Of a stretch of 36,294 bases of DNA, positions 27,429 to 36,294 are shown piece after piece. The stretch comes from Actinomycetota bacterium. GTDB taxonomy: Bacteria > Actinomycetota > Thermoleophilia > Gaiellales > Gaiellaceae. The notes under the pieces are model-generated. The model did not search any database, was not told the DNA's origin, and saw nothing but the letters and a program-made list of their open reading frames with translations. The stretch covers positions 1-36,294 of the forward strand of contig JAFAHG010000043.1 of assembly GCA_019237315.1 (NCBI GenBank). Reading direction: 5' to 3'. The stretch's first letter is position 1, and each line of letters begins with the position of its first letter. Both the position numbers and the translations under genes were made by a program.

Positions 27429-28820
27429 TCAAGCGATCAGGCGTTCCAGCTCCCGCCGCACGTCGGCGGCGGGACGCGCTTCGACGACGGGCCCGTTGCC
27501 GCCGAGCAGCACCACGTTGATCGTGTCGCCGGAGCGCTTCTTGTCGCGGAGGAGCGCTTGCCAGGCTCGCTCCACGTCGACCGCGACCGCCTTCGGGGCG
27601 AGCCGGGCCTCGACCGCCGCGGTGTCCCGTCCGGAGAGCCGGAGCGCCGCCAGCAGCCCGAGCGCCACTGCGTCCCCGTGCGGCAGGTCGAAGTCGGCCG
27701 CAGCCTCGAGCGCGTGGGCGAACGTATGCCCGAGGTTGAGCCAGCGCCTGTCTCCGTGGTCGTACGGGTCGCGCAGGCACACCGCGCTCTTGTACGCCGC
27801 GGCGCCGCGCACGTCGAGCTCGCGGCCGGCGAGGAGTTGCGTCTTCACGAGCTCCGCGAGCCCCTGGCGCCGTTCGCGCTCGGGCAGCGTCTCGAGAAGC
27901 GTTTCGTCGATCACGACGCGCGCAGGCCAGTGGAACGCGCCGACGAGGTTCTTGCCACCGGGGATGTCGATCGCGGTCTTGCCGCCGACCGCCGCGTCGA
28001 CCTGACCGACGAGCGTCGTCGGCACGGCGACCCATGGCACGCCGCGCAGATAGGTCGCGGCGGCGAACCCGGCGAGGTCGGTGGTGCAGCCGCCGCCGAG
28101 CGCGACGATCGTCCCCGAGCGGTCAAGGCGAAGCTCGCCCCAGAGGCGCTCGAGGACCGCTCCCTGCTTCGCCGACTCGCCCGGCGGCAGCTCGTGCAGG
28201 GACGCGAACCGCTTGCCGAGCGCCTCCTGCGCACGCGGCCCGTAGATGCCGAGCACGACCGCGTCGCCGACGAGCGCGACCCGGCCGTCGCCGGGGACGA
28301 GTGCACCGAGATCGTCGAGCGAACCCGTCTCGTGGTGGACGCCCGCGGCGGCGAGCACTGCGCCGTCGGAATCGGAGGCCGTTCCGTCCGCGACCTCCTC
28401 GTACATGGGCTGTCGCAGCTCGTAGCGGCGGCGGAACTCGCTTTCGTCGCGCGCGAGCGGGCGGTTGCTCCGGCGCACGCGCTCCCACGCCGTGTCGACG
28501 TCGACGTCCACGAAGAGCACGAAGGCGTCGGTCTCGCGCAGGAGGCCGCGCGTCTCGACAGCGCCACCGCCGACCGCGATCACCGATGGGTCGCGCGCCG
28601 CCGTCGCGGCGCGGACGAACTCCGCCTCGATCGCGCGGAACGCCGCTTCGCCGTCGCGCGCGAAGATGTCCCAGATCGGACCGTGCACCTCCTCGATCGC
28701 GTGGTCGACGTCGTGGAACGGACGGCCGAGGCGGCGCGCGAGGTCGCGGCCGAGCGTCGTCTTGCCGGCCCCCATGAAGCCGGTGACGACGACGTGGCGG
28801 TCGAGCGCGTTCAGCGCCAC
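27429..28820 (-). CDS. aroKB: Bifunctional shikimate kinase / 3-dehydroquinate synthase fusion
   Basis: N-terminal VVVTGFMGAGKTTLGRDLARRLGRPFHDVDHAIEE...VIAVGGGAV (AroK), then VALGGGCTTDLAGFAAATYLRGVPWVAVPTTLVGQVDAAVGGKTAID, GLAELVKTQLL, RWLNLGHTFAHALE, LPHGDAVALGLL (AroB) in one frame. GTG start 28820. Confidence 0.93.
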   Translation of the reverse strand: MALNALDRHVVVTGFMGAGKTTLGRDLARRLGRPFHDVDHAIEEVHGPIWDIFARDGEAAFRAIEAEFVRAATAARDPSVIAVGGGAVETRGLLRETDAFVLFVDVDVDTAWERVRRSNRPLARDESEFRRRYELRQPMYEEVADGTASDSDGAVLAAAGVHHETGSLDDLGALVPGDGRVALVGDAVVLGIYGPRAQEALGKRFASLHELPPGESAKQGAVLERLWGELRLDRSGTIVALGGGCTTDLAGFAAATYLRGVPWVAVPTTLVGQVDAAVGGKTAIDIPGGKNLVGAFHWPARVVIDETLLETLPERERRQGLAELVKTQLLAGRELDVRGAAAYKSAVCLRDPYDHGDRRWLNLGHTFAHALEAAADFDLPHGDAVALGLLAALRLSGRDTAAVEARLAPKAVAVDVERAWQALLRDKKRSGDTINVVLLGGNGPVVEARPAADVRRELERLIA

Positions 28821-29878
28821 TGGATGCGCTCGACGTACGCGCGCCACGCGGCGACGAAGTCCTCGACGCTGTCGCCGCCGAACTTCTCGTGCGCCGAGAC
28901 TGCGAGCTCCCACGCGACGGCCGCCTCGGCGACGACGGCGAGCGCCTCCACCGCCGCGACGTCGGAGCGCTCCACGAGCGCCTGCGCGGCCTCGCCGGTG
29001 GCGAGGTCGACCGATGAGAGCGGCTTCATCAACGTCGGCAACGGCTTCATCGCCGCGCGCACGACGATCTCCTCGCCGTTCGACATTCCGGCTTCGAGAC
29101 CGCCGGCGTGGTTCGTGTCGCGGCGGCGGTCGGTGCGGATCTCGTCGTGCGCCGCCGAGCCGCGCTTCGCCGCGAGGTCGAAGCCGTCGCCGATCTCGAC
29201 GCCCTTCACCGCCTGGATGCCCATCACGGCCGCGGCGAGGCGCGCGTCGAGCCGGTCCTCCTTCGTCGCGTACGTCCCGAGTCCCGGCGGTACGCCGCGC
29301 GCGCGCACCTCGACGACGCCGCCGACCGTGTCGCGCTCCTTGCGCGCCTCGTCGATCTCGGCGCGCAACCGTTCCTCCTCCACCGTCGAGCCTGCGACCT
29401 CGATCCCGATCGTTCCGAGAAGCGCCTTCGCCGCCGCGCCGGCGGCGACGTGGACGGCCGTGTGCCGCGCCGACGCGCGCTCGAGAGCGTTGCGGACGTC
29501 GTCGTGCCCGTACTTGAGCACCCCGGCGAGATCCGCGTGGCCGGGCCGCGGCAAGGTGACCGCCTTCGTCCCCTTCCCTTCGGGCTCGCCCTCGGGAGGC
29601 CAGGGGTTCATCCCCCACGTCCAGTTCTTGTGGTCGCGGTTCCGCACGACGAGCGCGAGCGGCGTCCCGAGCGTCCGGCCGTGCCGGAGCCCGGCGAGCA
29701 CCTCGATCTCGTCCGTCTCGATTTGCTGGCGCGGGCTTCGTCCGTAGCCCTCCTGCCGTCGGCGCAGGTCGGCGTTGATCGCGTCCCGGTCGAGCAGGAG
29801 CCCGGCCGGAAGCCCGGTGACGATCGCGACCAACGCAGGGCCGTGCGACTCGCCCGCGCTTGCGAGACGGAGGGTCAT
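28811..29878 (-). CDS. aroC: Chorismate synthase
   Basis: LRLASAGESHGPALVAIVTGLPAGL, RRRQEGYGRSPRQQIETDEIEVLAGLRHGRTLGTPLAL, KPLPTLMKPLSSVDLATGE. Confidence 0.97.
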   Translation of the reverse strand: MTLRLASAGESHGPALVAIVTGLPAGLLLDRDAINADLRRRQEGYGRSPRQQIETDEIEVLAGLRHGRTLGTPLALVVRNRDHKNWTWGMNPWPPEGEPEGKGTKAVTLPRPGHADLAGVLKYGHDDVRNALERASARHTAVHVAAGAAAKALLGTIGIEVAGSTVEEERLRAEIDEARKERDTVGGVVEVRARGVPPGLGTYATKEDRLDARLAAAVMGIQAVKGVEIGDGFDLAAKRGSAAHDEIRTDRRRDTNHAGGLEAGMSNGEEIVVRAAMKPLPTLMKPLSSVDLATGEAAQALVERSDVAAVEALAVVAEAAVAWELAVSAHEKFGGDSVEDFVAAWRAYVERIQWR

Positions 29879-29887
29879 GCCTCCAGC

Positions 29888-30565
29888 CTAGAGGCGAACC
29901 GCGGCGCGCATCACGTCGACCGGCGCCTCGACGCCGGTCCAGAGCTCGAAGCTCTTCGCCCCCTGCCGCACGAGCGCCTCGCGCCCGTCGATCACCGTGG
30001 CGCCTGCAGCGCGCGCCGCAGCGGCGAGCGCGGTGTCGCCGCTGTCTCCGGAGTACGCGAGCTCGACGACGACCTGCCCCGCGTGCGGGACGACGAGGAG
30101 CTCGTCGCGGACGGGCGTCGCGTTGACGACCAGGTCGCACCCGTCGGCGTCCGGCGGCCACTCGCCGCGGCGCGAGAAGACGCGTGTGTCCGGTGGAAGC
30201 GCAGGCGCGAGCGCACGCGCCGCGCCGCCCGCGCCGATCACGCACGCGCGCCGAGCCTCGATGCCCGCGAGGATGTTCTTGTCGGTGTTGAAGCCGAGCA
30301 CGCGGCCGTCGCGGACGACGAGCGTGTTGATCGAGTCGCCTTCCGCCTCGTCGCACGCGGCGACGACCGCCTGCTTGTGCGGGATCGTGACGTTCGCGCC
30401 GGCGAATCCGCGCGCACGCAGGTCGTCGACGGCGGCAACGACGTCCTCGACGTCGAGTGCGGTGTAGTCCCAGTCGAGCCCGCGCGCGGCGAACGCGGCG
30501 TTCTGCATCTTCGGCGAGAGCGAATGCGAGACGGGGTGACCGAGCAGATAGACGTGCTGGGTCAA
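29888..30565 (-). CDS. aroE: Shikimate dehydrogenase (compact, 225 aa)
   Basis: YLLGHPVSHSLSPKMQNAAF, FAGANVTIPHKQAVV, SINTLVVRDGRVLGFNTD, CVIGAGGAARAL, RQGAKSFELWTG. Confidence 0.93.
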   Translation of the reverse strand: MTQHVYLLGHPVSHSLSPKMQNAAFAARGLDWDYTALDVEDVVAAVDDLRARGFAGANVTIPHKQAVVAACDEAEGDSINTLVVRDGRVLGFNTDKNILAGIEARRACVIGAGGAARALAPALPPDTRVFSRRGEWPPDADGCDLVVNATPVRDELLVVPHAGQVVVELAYSGDSGDTALAAAARAAGATVIDGREALVRQGAKSFELWTGVEAPVDVMRAAVRL

Positions 30566-31383
30566 TGCGGGCCGTACCCGTGCGTCGCGAGGTACTGCTC
30601 GTACGCGGTGTAGCTCTCGAAGAACACCTGCCTGTCCGTGTTCGGGATCCGCGCGTAGTACAGATAGCCGAGTCGCGACGGATGTGCAGCGGCCTGCAGC
30701 GACGCGAAGCCGGGGTTGCCGATCGGCGTCGGCGGCAGGCCGTACAGCTTGCGCGTGTTGTAGGGGTTGTCACTCGCGAGCTCCGACTGGGTGATCGACT
30801 GTGTGGGCGGGATGTGCAACCCGTACCGGAGGGTTGCGTCGATCTGCAGCGGCATGCGGTCACGCAGCCGGTTGTAGATCACCGCCGCGACCTTCGGGCG
30901 GTCGCCGGGAACCGCCGCCTCCTCCTCGACCATCGACGCGATCTCGAGCACGTCGTAGGCGGTGAGATGCTTCGAGACGGCGTACGCGAGATTCAGCCGG
31001 CGCCAGTTGCGACAGAACGCGATCAGCTGCGCCTGCACGAGCACCCGCGACGGCGTCTGCCGCAGGAAGTCGTATGTCGCCGGGAAGAGGAACCCCTCGA
31101 GGTTCGACTGGATCTGCTTCCCGAAGCAAGGAACCAACCCGCGCTTGCTCGCGAGGAGGTACGCGCGCTCGTTCAGCCGCACCGGCTCGTGCCGCTCGTG
31201 TTGCGCGATCTTCGCCACCTTCGCGACGCGCAACGCCATCTCGACCCGCGTGAAGCCCTCCGGGAAGACGATCCGGAACGGTTTCGGCGGCGGGGGCGGC
31301 GGCGGAGGCGCGGCGGGCTTGCTGCTGCCGCACCCCGCGAGGGCGAATGCCCCGGCGACGATCAGCGCCGCGCGCTTCGCCAT
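30562..31383 (-). CDS. mltG: MltG/YceG-like endolytic murein transglycosylase, predicted lipoprotein
   Basis: Lipobox ALAGC after a short signal peptide, Pro8 linker, LEGFLFPATYDF, LEIASMVEEEAAVPGDRPKVAAVIYNRLRDRMPLQIDATLRYG. Confidence 0.9.
   Translation of the reverse strand: MAKRAALIVAGAFALAGCGSSKPAAPPPPPPPPKPFRIVFPEGFTRVEMALRVAKVAKIAQHERHEPVRLNERAYLLASKRGLVPCFGKQIQSNLEGFLFPATYDFLRQTPSRVLVQAQLIAFCRNWRRLNLAYAVSKHLTAYDVLEIASMVEEEAAVPGDRPKVAAVIYNRLRDRMPLQIDATLRYGLHIPPTQSITQSELASDNPYNTRKLYGLPPTPIGNPGFASLQAAAHPSRLGYLYYARIPNTDRQVFFESYTAYEQYLATHGYGPH

Positions 31384-31732: not shown

Positions 31733-31736
<4 letters not shown>
31362..31736 (-). CDS. ruvX: Putative pre-16S rRNA nuclease (YqgF/RuvX family)
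   Basis: VKVLALDYGSARTGVAVSDPTGTVARPL, EEIVVGLPLTLKGTHGDQA, VETYDERFTSVLAD. GTG start. Confidence 0.93.
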
Positions 31737-34273
<2,537 letters not shown>

Positions 34274-34296
34274 CGACGACAGTGTAGGCGCGCCTG

Positions 34297-35070
34297 CTAG
34301 CCGCGCTGGGCGGCGCTGCCCTGCGCCTCGTCCGCGGCGATCTCGTCGCGGATCTTCTCGAGCGCACGGCGGATCAGGCGGGACACGTGCATCTGCGAGA
34401 TGCCCACCTGCTGCGCGATCTGCGACTGCGTCAGGCCCTCGAAGAAGCGCAGGTGGAGGATCGTCCGCTCGCGCGGGTCGAGCACGCGGAAGCCGGGCGC
34501 GAGCACAGCGCGGTCTTCCGAGACCTCGTACTCGTGCTCGATCTCCCCCAGCGTCTCGAGCGGGTCGATCTCGTCGCCGTCCTCCTGCCCGCCGCCCTGC
34601 GAGAGGGAAAGGGAGGAGTACGCACGACCGGACTCGAGCGCCTCGAGCACCGCTTCCTCCTCGACGCCGGCGGCCTGCGCCAGCTCGGGGATCGTCGGCG
34701 AGCGCGCAAGCTGCACGGTCAACTGCTCGACCAGCTTCGAGAGCTGGACGTTCAGCTCTTGCAACCCGCGCGGAACGCGAACCGCCCAGCTGCGGTCGCG
34801 GAAGTGCCGCTTGATCTCACCGATGATGTTCGGCGTCGCGTACGTCGTCAGCTCGACGCCGCGGTTGACGTCGAAGCGGTCGATCGCCTTGATCAGGCCG
34901 ATCGCGCCGATCTGGACGAGGTCGTCGAACTGCTCGCCGCGGTAGGCGTAGCGCCGCGCAAGCGAGCGCACCAGCGACATGTACTGCTCGATCAGCTGCT
35001 GGCGTGCTTGCAGATCGCCTTGCTCGTGGTAGCGGCGCAGGAGGATCTTGTCGTTCTCAGCCACTCGCAC
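34297..35070 (-). CDS. RNA polymerase sigma factor, SigB/F/G subfamily
   Basis: LIEQYMSLVRSLARRYAYRGEQFDDLVQIGAIGLIKAIDRFDVNRGVELTTYATPNIIGEIKRHFRDRSWAVRVPRGLQELN (region 2/3) and RERTILHLRFFEGLTQSQIAQQVGISQMHVSRLIRRALEKIR (region 4). Confidence 0.95.
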   Translation of the reverse strand: MRVAENDKILLRRYHEQGDLQARQQLIEQYMSLVRSLARRYAYRGEQFDDLVQIGAIGLIKAIDRFDVNRGVELTTYATPNIIGEIKRHFRDRSWAVRVPRGLQELNVQLSKLVEQLTVQLARSPTIPELAQAAGVEEEAVLEALESGRAYSSLSLSQGGGQEDGDEIDPLETLGEIEHEYEVSEDRAVLAPGFRVLDPRERTILHLRFFEGLTQSQIAQQVGISQMHVSRLIRRALEKIRDEIAADEAQGSAAQRG

Positions 35071-35413
35071 CCACCCGCTTCAGCAGACGCACGGAGTCTC
35101 CTTCGACCTCGACGTCGTCCGCGACCGCCATCAGGACGCGGCGCAGGTCGAGGTCGCTGTCGCTGCCGCCGTCGAGCGAGCCGACATCGACGGGGGCGAC
35201 GCGCGTCTCGAGCAGTCCGTCGTGGTTCGAGAGCGCAACCGTCACGTCACCGTCGACGGCGCTCGCGTTCAGGAGCGCGTCGAGTGCGATCTGCATGTCC
35301 TCGAGCATCTCGATCGTCAGGTCGAGCCGCAGGGCGAGCCCGCCGAGGACGAGGTGCGCGACGCGGTGGTACTCGCGGTCGCGCGGAATCGTGAGGGTGA
35401 TCTCGTCAGTCAC
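35057..35413 (-). CDS. RsbW-like (GHKL fold) putative anti-sigma regulatory protein, degenerate ATP site
   Basis: VTDEITLTIPRDREYHRVAHLVLGGLALRLDLTIEMLEDMQIALDALLNA resembles the RsbW/SpoIIAB N-terminus and N-box. C-terminal DVEVEGDSVRLLKRV matches the RsbW last strand. Immediately upstream of and overlapping the sigma gene. No DxGxG or GxGL boxes. Confidence 0.6.
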   Translation of the reverse strand: MTDEITLTIPRDREYHRVAHLVLGGLALRLDLTIEMLEDMQIALDALLNASAVDGDVTVALSNHDGLLETRVAPVDVGSLDGGSDSDLDLRRVLMAVADDVEVEGDSVRLLKRVGASG

Positions 35414-35861
35414 GTGCGCGTCGGAGCTCCTCTTCGAAGTCGGCTTCGCGGCGTGCCGCAGCTTCCTTTCCGGTTGCGACGGCGTCGCTCCAACTGCGGC
35501 GTGCGCGGAGGCTGGCGGCGCCGTGGGACACACCCGCCGCGAGCCCCGTCAGCTTCTGCACCGGTCGCTTGACGGCGAAACTCACGGCGCGCACCGCCTG
35601 GTCGACGCTCTCGACCGCGTCGACGGCGCTGTCGCTGGCCTGCCCCAATTTGTCGAGCTCTGCGTTCACCCGATCGACGGACCCTCCGACCTTCGCGATC
35701 ACCGGCAAAAGTTCTCGTTCCGTACCCCTGATCAACGAAGAAAGCCGTCCGAAAGTTGCGCCTAGTCGCAAAAAGACCCAGCCGAGGCCGAGACCGACGG
35801 TGACGAGGAAGACCGCGAGGGCGATCCAGGCCGCGTCGCTGGCCGTGAAGGCGAGGAGCAC
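35406..35861 (-). CDS. DUF948-like membrane protein with N-terminal TM and coiled coil
   Basis: DAAWIALAVFLVTVGLGLGWVFLRLGATFGRLSSLIRGTERELLPVIAKVGGSVDRVNAELDKLGQASDSAVDAVESVDQAVRAVSFAVKRPVQKLTGLAAG. Confidence 0.75.
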   Translation of the reverse strand: MLLAFTASDAAWIALAVFLVTVGLGLGWVFLRLGATFGRLSSLIRGTERELLPVIAKVGGSVDRVNAELDKLGQASDSAVDAVESVDQAVRAVSFAVKRPVQKLTGLAAGVSHGAASLRARRSWSDAVATGKEAAARREADFEEELRRARD

Positions 35862-35871
35862 GGGCGGGATC

Positions 35872-36294
35872 TTAGACCCCGGTCGCCGTGATCAGCCCCG
35901 ACCCGACGACGGCGCCGTCCGCGTAGAGGACGGCCGCCTGGCCGCGCGCCACGCCGTAGGCGGGCCGGTCGAGACGGAGCTCGAAGCCGTCGGCGGTGGG
36001 CTCGACGCAGGCCCCGGTGGCGGGCGAGCGGTAGCGGAGCTTCGCCTCGACCCGTGGCACCTCCGCGAAGAGGCGACCCTCGACGGAGACGCGCGTGCGG
36101 CCGAGCGACGCGCGCGGGCCGACGACGAGCGTGTTCGTCGCGGCGTCCGCCGAGATCGCGTACAGCGGCTCGCGGGCGGCGACGCCGAGCCCCCGCCGCT
36201 GCCCGACCGTGTAACGCCAGTGGCCGTCATGCGCACCCACGACCCGTCCGGACTCGTCGACGATCGGCCCTGCCGCACGAGACACGCCGTGCCG
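35872..36294 (-). CDS. mnmA: tRNA-specific 2-thiouridylase MnmA, C-terminal part (5' end beyond window)
   Basis: GPIVDESGRVVGAHDGHWRYTVGQRRGLGVAAREPLYAI plus C-terminal beta-barrel LDRPAYGVARGQAAVLYADGAVVGSGLI. Frame open through the right edge. Confidence 0.92.
   Translation of the reverse strand, partial: RHGVSRAAGPIVDESGRVVGAHDGHWRYTVGQRRGLGVAAREPLYAISADAATNTLVVGPRASLGRTRVSVEGRLFAEVPRVEAKLRYRSPATGACVEPTADGFELRLDRPAYGVARGQAAVLYADGAVVGSGLITATGV

What the first reader, a model, noticed from the sequence alone, without database searches (positions are those of the whole stretch)
35057..35413. RsbW-like protein without recognisable ATP-binding G boxes next to a SigB/F-type sigma factor
118-aa product starts like RsbW/SpoIIAB (TLTIPRDREYHRVAHLVLGGLA...EDMQIALDALLNA, with D replacing the N-box Glu) and ends like it (VEVEGDSVRLLKRV). 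The DxGxG and GxGL nucleotide-binding motifs are replaced by an Asp-rich segment (DVGSLDGGSDSDLDLRR). It is encoded 5' of the sigma gene with a 14-bp overlap, as in rsbW-sigB. No RsbV/SpoIIAA-type antagonist is visible. A kinase-dead anti-sigma factor would need a different release mechanism from classical partner switching.
Basis: partly seen in the sequence, partly recalled or inferred. Interest (0 to 1): 0.65.

Follow-up and report, generated by a model that had tools for sequence, protein, structure and literature searches.

The report
Kinase-dead RsbW guarding a stress sigma factor
A small protein encoded just before a bacterial stress-response sigma factor is a cousin of the RsbW switch protein that has lost its ATP-binding site; it most likely still holds the sigma factor, while a separate, intact RsbW elsewhere in the genome does the phosphorylation, a division of labour already shown in mycobacteria and here seen across a whole phylum.

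Summary
The 118-aa product (35413-35057, minus strand) is a true RsbW/SpoIIAB homologue: profile-profile probability 98.5, AlphaFold model pLDDT 88.7, and its 19 best PDB fold matches are all RsbW, SpoIIAB or UsfX. It lacks the N, G1 and G2 boxes and most of the ATP lid. It is not a one-off: 77 of 103 genomes of its family carry it, almost always 5' of the same SigB/F-type sigma gene, under purifying selection (dN/dS about 0.31).

The claim that release must differ from partner switching is not needed. The genome, though not the window, holds an intact RsbW kinase (beside an otsA-type gene, with a SigB-like promoter), a stand-alone STAS antagonist with the phospho-serine motif, and a SpoIIE phosphatase. 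In genomes at least 90% complete the dead copy, sigma, intact RsbW and STAS come and go together (37 genomes, one discordance).

This is the split system shown experimentally in Mycobacterium smegmatis (PMC7693655): RsbW1/UsfX, kinase-less, holds SigF; RsbW2 is the kinase. New here: the dead copy is spread across Actinomycetota, and the Thermoleophilia branch is more degenerate than UsfX, having also lost the catalytic Glu and a sigma-contact Lys. Sigma binding is inferred, not shown.

The parts
35057..35413 (-). pseudo-RsbW: kinase-dead RsbW/SpoIIAB-type anti-sigma protein, 118 aa, GTG start
35264..35278 (-). position of the lost N box (residues 46-50, ALLNA): Ala46 at the catalytic Glu, Ala50 at the Mg-binding Asn
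   Evidence: alignment; residue roles from PMC10345196
35138..35197 (-). position of lost G1 (DxGxG), shortened ATP lid and lost G2 (GxGL) (residues 73-92, APVDVGSLDGGSDSDLDLRR)
   Evidence: alignment; AF2 secondary structure (14 residues between strand 67-73 and helix 88-97)
35327..35377 (-). helix alpha-1 (residues 13-29, REYHRVAHLVLGGLALR), the best conserved part; the equivalent helix forms the RsbW dimer and partner surface; His20 replaces Arg20 of SpoIIAB
   Evidence: interface roles PMC7340262, PMC10345196
34297..35070 (-). SigB/SigF/SigG-family sigma factor, 257 aa, the only close one in the genome; overlaps pseudo-RsbW by 14 bp (8 bp if it starts at 35064)
35406..35861 (-). DUF948-like protein, 151 aa, probable N-terminal membrane helix; overlaps pseudo-RsbW by 8 bp; conserved neighbour
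   Evidence: (PF06103 E 2.9e-4, below cut-off)
35872..36294 (-). mnmA (tRNA 2-thiouridine synthase), C-terminal part, cut by the contig end; conserved upstream neighbour
31733..34273 (-). alaS (alanine--tRNA ligase), conserved downstream neighbour

Best explanation
[quoted passage not shown] Proposed steps: (1) pseudo-RsbW forms a dimer through beta-1 and alpha-1 and holds sigma without ATP (inferred); (2) the intact RsbW encoded on contig C200 phosphorylates the STAS antagonist encoded on C44, which keeps the antagonist inactive (inferred from intact motifs and from M. smegmatis RsbW2/RsfB); (3) under stress the GAF-SpoIIE phosphatase on C246, or a similar one, dephosphorylates it, and it then pulls pseudo-RsbW off sigma (inferred); (4) sigma probably transcribes the intact rsbW/otsA gene pair as feedback (inferred from a promoter-like motif). 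Shown here: homology, fold, loss of the boxes, conservation and selection, synteny with sigma, presence and co-occurrence of the partners. Not shown: any binding, any kinase activity.
For: Homology and fold. The boxes are lost in the window protein and its relatives, while all 23 intact RsbW compared keep E46, N50, D of G1 and the second G of G2. Position directly 5' of sigma in about 110 locus records, some of them the same locus fetched twice. Purifying selection. Genome has one such sigma, one stand-alone intact RsbW, one stand-alone STAS protein with FIDST motif and a GAF-SpoIIE phosphatase. Co-occurrence: of 37 genomes at least 90% complete, 25 have both dead and intact RsbW, 11 have neither, 1 differs; sigma and STAS follow the same pattern (from 12, 41, 46, 59, 60). 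In related genera the genes form one operon, STAS - pseudo-RsbW - sigma - intact RsbW. The intact rsbW has a GTTT-N15/16-GGG(A/T)A motif upstream in 7 of 21 loci, own genome included, against 0.6% background. Experimental precedent: PMC7693655, PMC10950880. Dead copies including UsfX lie on one side of a branch with 99/98 support.
Against: Residues that bind partners in SpoIIAB/RsbW are changed in this branch: Arg20 is His here (variable in the family), Lys41 is Gln or Glu in most, catalytic Glu46 is Ala, Ser or Thr in most; UsfX-type relatives keep Arg20 and Glu46 and have Lys or Arg at 41. So the STAS protein or sigma may not bind in the known way. No covariation of residue 20 with the sigma acidic residue was seen. 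The intact RsbW keeps all contact residues and could itself be the anti-sigma factor. Grouping with UsfX weakens to 79/60 when the lost-motif columns are left out. Co-occurrence counts are not corrected for shared ancestry or for incomplete MAGs, and presence/absence calls for the strict STAS orthologue used a hand-set cut-off.
Confidence: 0.62

Rival explanations
1. RsbW3-like modulator. The intact RsbW is both kinase and anti-sigma factor, and pseudo-RsbW pairs with it through the conserved beta-1/alpha-1 surface, making heterodimers that cannot hold sigma or that work asymmetrically. It would then be an antagonist or tuning subunit.
For: RsbW3 of M. smegmatis binds RsbW1 and raises SigF activity without binding SigF (PMC7693655). 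The dimer helix is the best conserved part. Sigma-contact Arg20/Lys41 are lost in the dead copy but kept in the intact one. Strict co-occurrence of dead and intact copies. In genus g10 some genomes have sigma next to the intact copy only and the dead copy beside STAS genes (L033; L041 and L048 show the dead copy beside STAS genes).
Against: In most genomes sigma is translationally coupled to the dead copy, not to the intact one, the usual sign of an anti-sigma/sigma pair. RsbW3 is not next to sigF.
Confidence: 0.2
2. Anti-sigma factor released by another route: it binds sigma without nucleotide and does not respond to the STAS protein; release is by proteolysis, redox, the DUF948 neighbour or simple titration.
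For: Residues equivalent to those of RsbW that touch RsbV (Arg23, Glu49) are replaced here. A DUF948-like probable membrane protein is translationally coupled and conserved.
Against: STAS antagonist and intact kinase are conserved and co-lost with it. In related genera the STAS gene is in the same operon.
Confidence: 0.1
3. Sigma-binding chaperone or remnant with no anti-sigma role, or a decaying gene.
For: Loss of catalytic and some contact residues.
Against: Conserved across the class, open in nearly all genomes, dN/dS about 0.31, invariant L21, G25, L48 across 50 relatives.
Confidence: 0.05

Closest known systems
RsbW1 (MSMEG_1803) of Mycobacterium smegmatis / UsfX (Rv3287c) of M. tuberculosis, anti-SigF
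   Same: Directly 5' of a SigB/F-type sigma gene; N-box Asn, G1 and G2 lost; in M. smegmatis a separate intact RsbW (RsbW2) and STAS antagonist (RsfB) are encoded elsewhere; same GHKL fold (8jzt, 8ih8 among best fold matches); same side of the tree.
   Different: UsfX-type proteins keep Arg20 and the catalytic-position Glu46 and have Lys or Arg at 41; the Thermoleophilia branch has lost Glu46 and Lys41 in nearly all members and often Arg20. Here the pair sits between mnmA and alaS, usually with a DUF948 gene, and the intact rsbW is beside otsA.
RsbW (Bacillus subtilis) / SpoIIAB
   Same: Fold, beta-1/alpha-1 dimer region, gene position before sigma.
   Different: No ATP site, shortened lid, so no kinase; kinase and anti-sigma roles are on one protein in Bacillus (PMC7340262, PMC7693655).
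RsbW3 (MSMEG_1787) of M. smegmatis
   Same: RsbW1-like homologue without kinase activity.
   Different: RsbW3 does not bind SigF and is encoded outside the rsbW1-sigF operon (PMC7693655).

Membership tests
RsbW/SpoIIAB serine kinase anti-sigma factors (TIGR01924, TIGR01925, PF13581) | Score above the curated family cut-off | tested here: not met
   TIGR01924 25.4 bits against 155; PF13581 no hit
RsbW/SpoIIAB serine kinase anti-sigma factors (TIGR01924, TIGR01925, PF13581) | N, G1 and G2 boxes | tested here: not met
   all lost in the window protein and its orthologues
RsbW/SpoIIAB serine kinase anti-sigma factors (TIGR01924, TIGR01925, PF13581) | Bergerat/GHKL fold of the anti-sigma type | tested here: met
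   AF2 pLDDT 88.7; Foldseek best matches RsbW, SpoIIAB, UsfX, E 2.5e-7
RsbW/SpoIIAB serine kinase anti-sigma factors (TIGR01924, TIGR01925, PF13581) | Phosphorylates a STAS antagonist | not testable with these tools
   needs a kinase assay; very unlikely without the boxes
Kinase-less UsfX/RsbW1-type anti-sigma factors | Encoded directly 5' of a SigB/F-type sigma gene | tested here: met
Kinase-less UsfX/RsbW1-type anti-sigma factors | RsbW homologue lacking nucleotide boxes | tested here: met
   UsfX aligned
Kinase-less UsfX/RsbW1-type anti-sigma factors | Separate intact RsbW kinase and STAS antagonist in the genome | tested here: met
Kinase-less UsfX/RsbW1-type anti-sigma factors | Common descent with UsfX to the exclusion of intact RsbW | tested here: inconclusive
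   99/98 with all columns, 79/60 when motif columns are left out
Kinase-less UsfX/RsbW1-type anti-sigma factors | Binds sigma; released by unphosphorylated STAS protein | not testable with these tools
   needs binding assays

The most novel reading that the evidence does not exclude
In Thermoleophilia the dead RsbW is not a plain RsbW1 equivalent. Having lost the residues that in RsbW and SpoIIAB touch both sigma and the STAS protein, it would work by a new geometry, most likely as an obligate heterodimer of one dead and one catalytic RsbW subunit around sigma, so that a single ATP site sets the switch.
Probability: 0.17. Interest if true: 0.65.

Novelty: new variant of a known kind. Interest (0 to 1): 0.42.

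Why it matters
The kinase-less anti-sigma factor of mycobacteria might look like a local peculiarity. The same kind of gene in front of a SigB-type sigma gene turns up here in many families across the phylum, mostly below the Pfam and NCBIfam cut-offs, so it is likely to be annotated as hypothetical. That suggests that splitting anti-sigma and kinase between two RsbW paralogues is old and widespread in Actinomycetota, and it gives natural variants (UsfX-like against the more degenerate Thermoleophilia branch) with which to ask which residues of RsbW are needed for holding sigma and which only for the ATP switch.

Tried and rejected
Chance ORF or pseudogene: rejected by conservation and dN/dS. 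Different fold: rejected. 'No antagonist in the organism': rejected by whole-genome searches. The Asp as a stand-in for the N-box Glu: rejected, off by one in a gap-free helix alignment. Compensatory change between residue 20 of pseudo-RsbW and the acidic residue of sigma equivalent to SigF Asp148: tested on 87 pairs, no pattern; most sigmas keep Glu/Asp although the window's has Ala. A SigB-type promoter inside the window: none found. A first database scan with the single protein found no relatives; an alignment was needed. The 50-row alignment was too diverse for a pattern scan. A fold of the pair as a complex was not possible with the tools.

Full report
What is there. On the minus strand the window reads mnmA (C-terminal end, cut by the contig end), a DUF948-like gene, the 118-aa gene, a sigma gene and alaS. 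The DUF948-like gene overlaps the 118-aa gene by 8 bp, and the 118-aa gene overlaps sigma by 14 bp (8 bp if sigma starts at the second GTG). The sigma protein is a SigB/SigF/SigG-family factor (TIGR02980, 285 bits against 234) and the only close one in the genome; the other sigma-70 proteins are at most 36% identical to it. The window is the whole of contig C169 of a 2.33-Mb, 91% complete genome bin. Named relatives found by sequence carry titles such as 'Thermoleophilia bacterium'.

Is it an RsbW? The single protein hits RsbW models weakly and only with its N-terminal half, and no Pfam family. With 50 relatives as a profile, B. subtilis RsbW is found in the PDB at E 4e-13, and profile-profile comparison with intact RsbW relatives gives probability 98.5 over the full length. 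The AlphaFold2 model (pLDDT 88.7, pTM 0.82) has the order E-H-H-E-E-H-E-E, and its 19 best PDB matches are all RsbW, SpoIIAB or UsfX chains (E 2.5e-7 to 2.2e-5, TM about 0.7-0.8). The homology and fold are settled.

What is missing. In SpoIIAB, Glu46 is the catalytic base, Asn50 binds Mg, and glycines 107 and 109 bind nucleotide (PMC10345196). The window protein has Ala46, Ala50, no DxGxG, no GxGL, and 14 residues between strand 67-73 and helix 88-97 where intact RsbW has a long lid. In the 83-sequence set, all 23 intact RsbW keep E46, N50, D of G1 and the second G of G2; no dead copy keeps the full set of boxes. Dead copies from other classes, and UsfX, still keep Glu46 and Arg20 (21 of 21), whereas in the family of the window Glu46 was kept in none of the 22 members in that set (a few members of the larger pair set do carry Glu there) and Arg20 is most often His.

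How widespread. 77 of 103 genomes of the family have an orthologue. The gene order mnmA - (DUF948) - pseudo-RsbW - sigma - alaS is the rule; the roughly 110 locus records counted include some loci fetched twice. In other families of the class the same pair occurs, often with the DUF948-like gene. In other classes of the phylum degenerate RsbW genes also lie directly 5' of a SigB-type gene, in two loci again followed by alaS. In a tree all dead copies, UsfX included, are on one side of a branch from all intact RsbW (99/98). With the motif columns removed to avoid circularity this drops to 79/60, while the class's own clade stays at 97/94. A single origin of the dead copy in the phylum is therefore plausible but not proven.

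The rest of the switch. The genome encodes, away from the window: an intact RsbW (C200, N/G1/G2 present, PF13581 96 bits) immediately before an OtsA-type trehalose-phosphate synthase gene; a stand-alone STAS protein with the FIDST phospho-serine motif (C44), 65-90% identical in most of the family; and a GAF-SpoIIE phosphatase (C246). Of 37 family genomes at least 90% complete, 25 have both dead and intact RsbW and 11 have neither, with one discordance; sigma and STAS follow (not corrected for relatedness). In genera g10, g11 and g31 the parts sit together: L032 is STAS - pseudo-RsbW - sigma - intact RsbW with 4-bp overlaps, L035 adds a SpoIIE and a second STAS gene. The intact rsbW carries a GTTT-N15/16-GGG(A/T)A motif upstream in 7 of 21 loci, including this genome (background 0.6%), and 17 of 21 with at most one mismatch (background 9%). 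This resembles the mycobacterial SigF consensus GTTT-N17-GGGTAA (PMC7693655) and suggests feedback.

How it probably works. In M. smegmatis RsbW1, the UsfX orthologue encoded 5' of sigF, binds SigF but has no kinase activity; RsbW2, with N, G1 and G2, does not bind SigF but is the only kinase for the STAS protein RsfB; unphosphorylated RsfB removes RsbW1 from SigF (PMC7693655); a PP2C phosphatase reactivates RsfB (PMC10950880). Every part of that scheme has a counterpart here. Confidence is 0.62, because binding is untested and because this branch has lost residues (equivalents of Arg20, Lys41, Glu46) that in SpoIIAB and RsbW contact sigma or the antagonist (PMC7340262, PMC10345196). That loss keeps alive the rival in which the dead copy acts through heterodimers with the intact RsbW, as RsbW3 is thought to do with RsbW1.

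Verdict. It is a new, more degenerate variant of a known kind, and its main value is to show that the split partner switch is probably a widespread feature of Actinomycetota.

Noticed in passing
L072:6331-6390 (own genome C200) and L173-L192: SigB/F-type promoter-like motif GTTT-N15/16-GGG(A/T)A upstream of the intact rsbW beside otsA; 7 of 21 loci exact against 0.6% background. In the own genome it overlaps the first possible GTG start, so the true start is probably further in.
   Followed up: partly
L031, L033, L041, L048 (genus g10): A dead RsbW copy beside STAS genes and away from sigma; in L033 sigma is followed directly by intact RsbW, while L031 has a second dead copy before sigma.
   Followed up: partly
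L143, L144, L146, L147: In other families of the class (f2, f5, f8, f10) a dead copy lies beside the intact RsbW; in L143 and L144 the order is sigma - intact RsbW - dead RsbW.
   Followed up: partly
window 35406-35861: DUF948-like gene translationally coupled to the dead RsbW and conserved in much of the class; role unknown.
   Followed up: no
window 31733-36294: A stress-type sigma gene embedded between the housekeeping genes mnmA and alaS, without a SigB-type promoter motif in the window, unlike the operons of genera g10, g11 and g31, several of which have such a motif upstream.
   Followed up: partly
   Followed up: no
window 27429-30863: Minus-strand frame that reads as a shikimate kinase followed by 3-dehydroquinate synthase in one ORF, a possible aroK-aroB fusion (judged by eye from the translation).
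   Followed up: no
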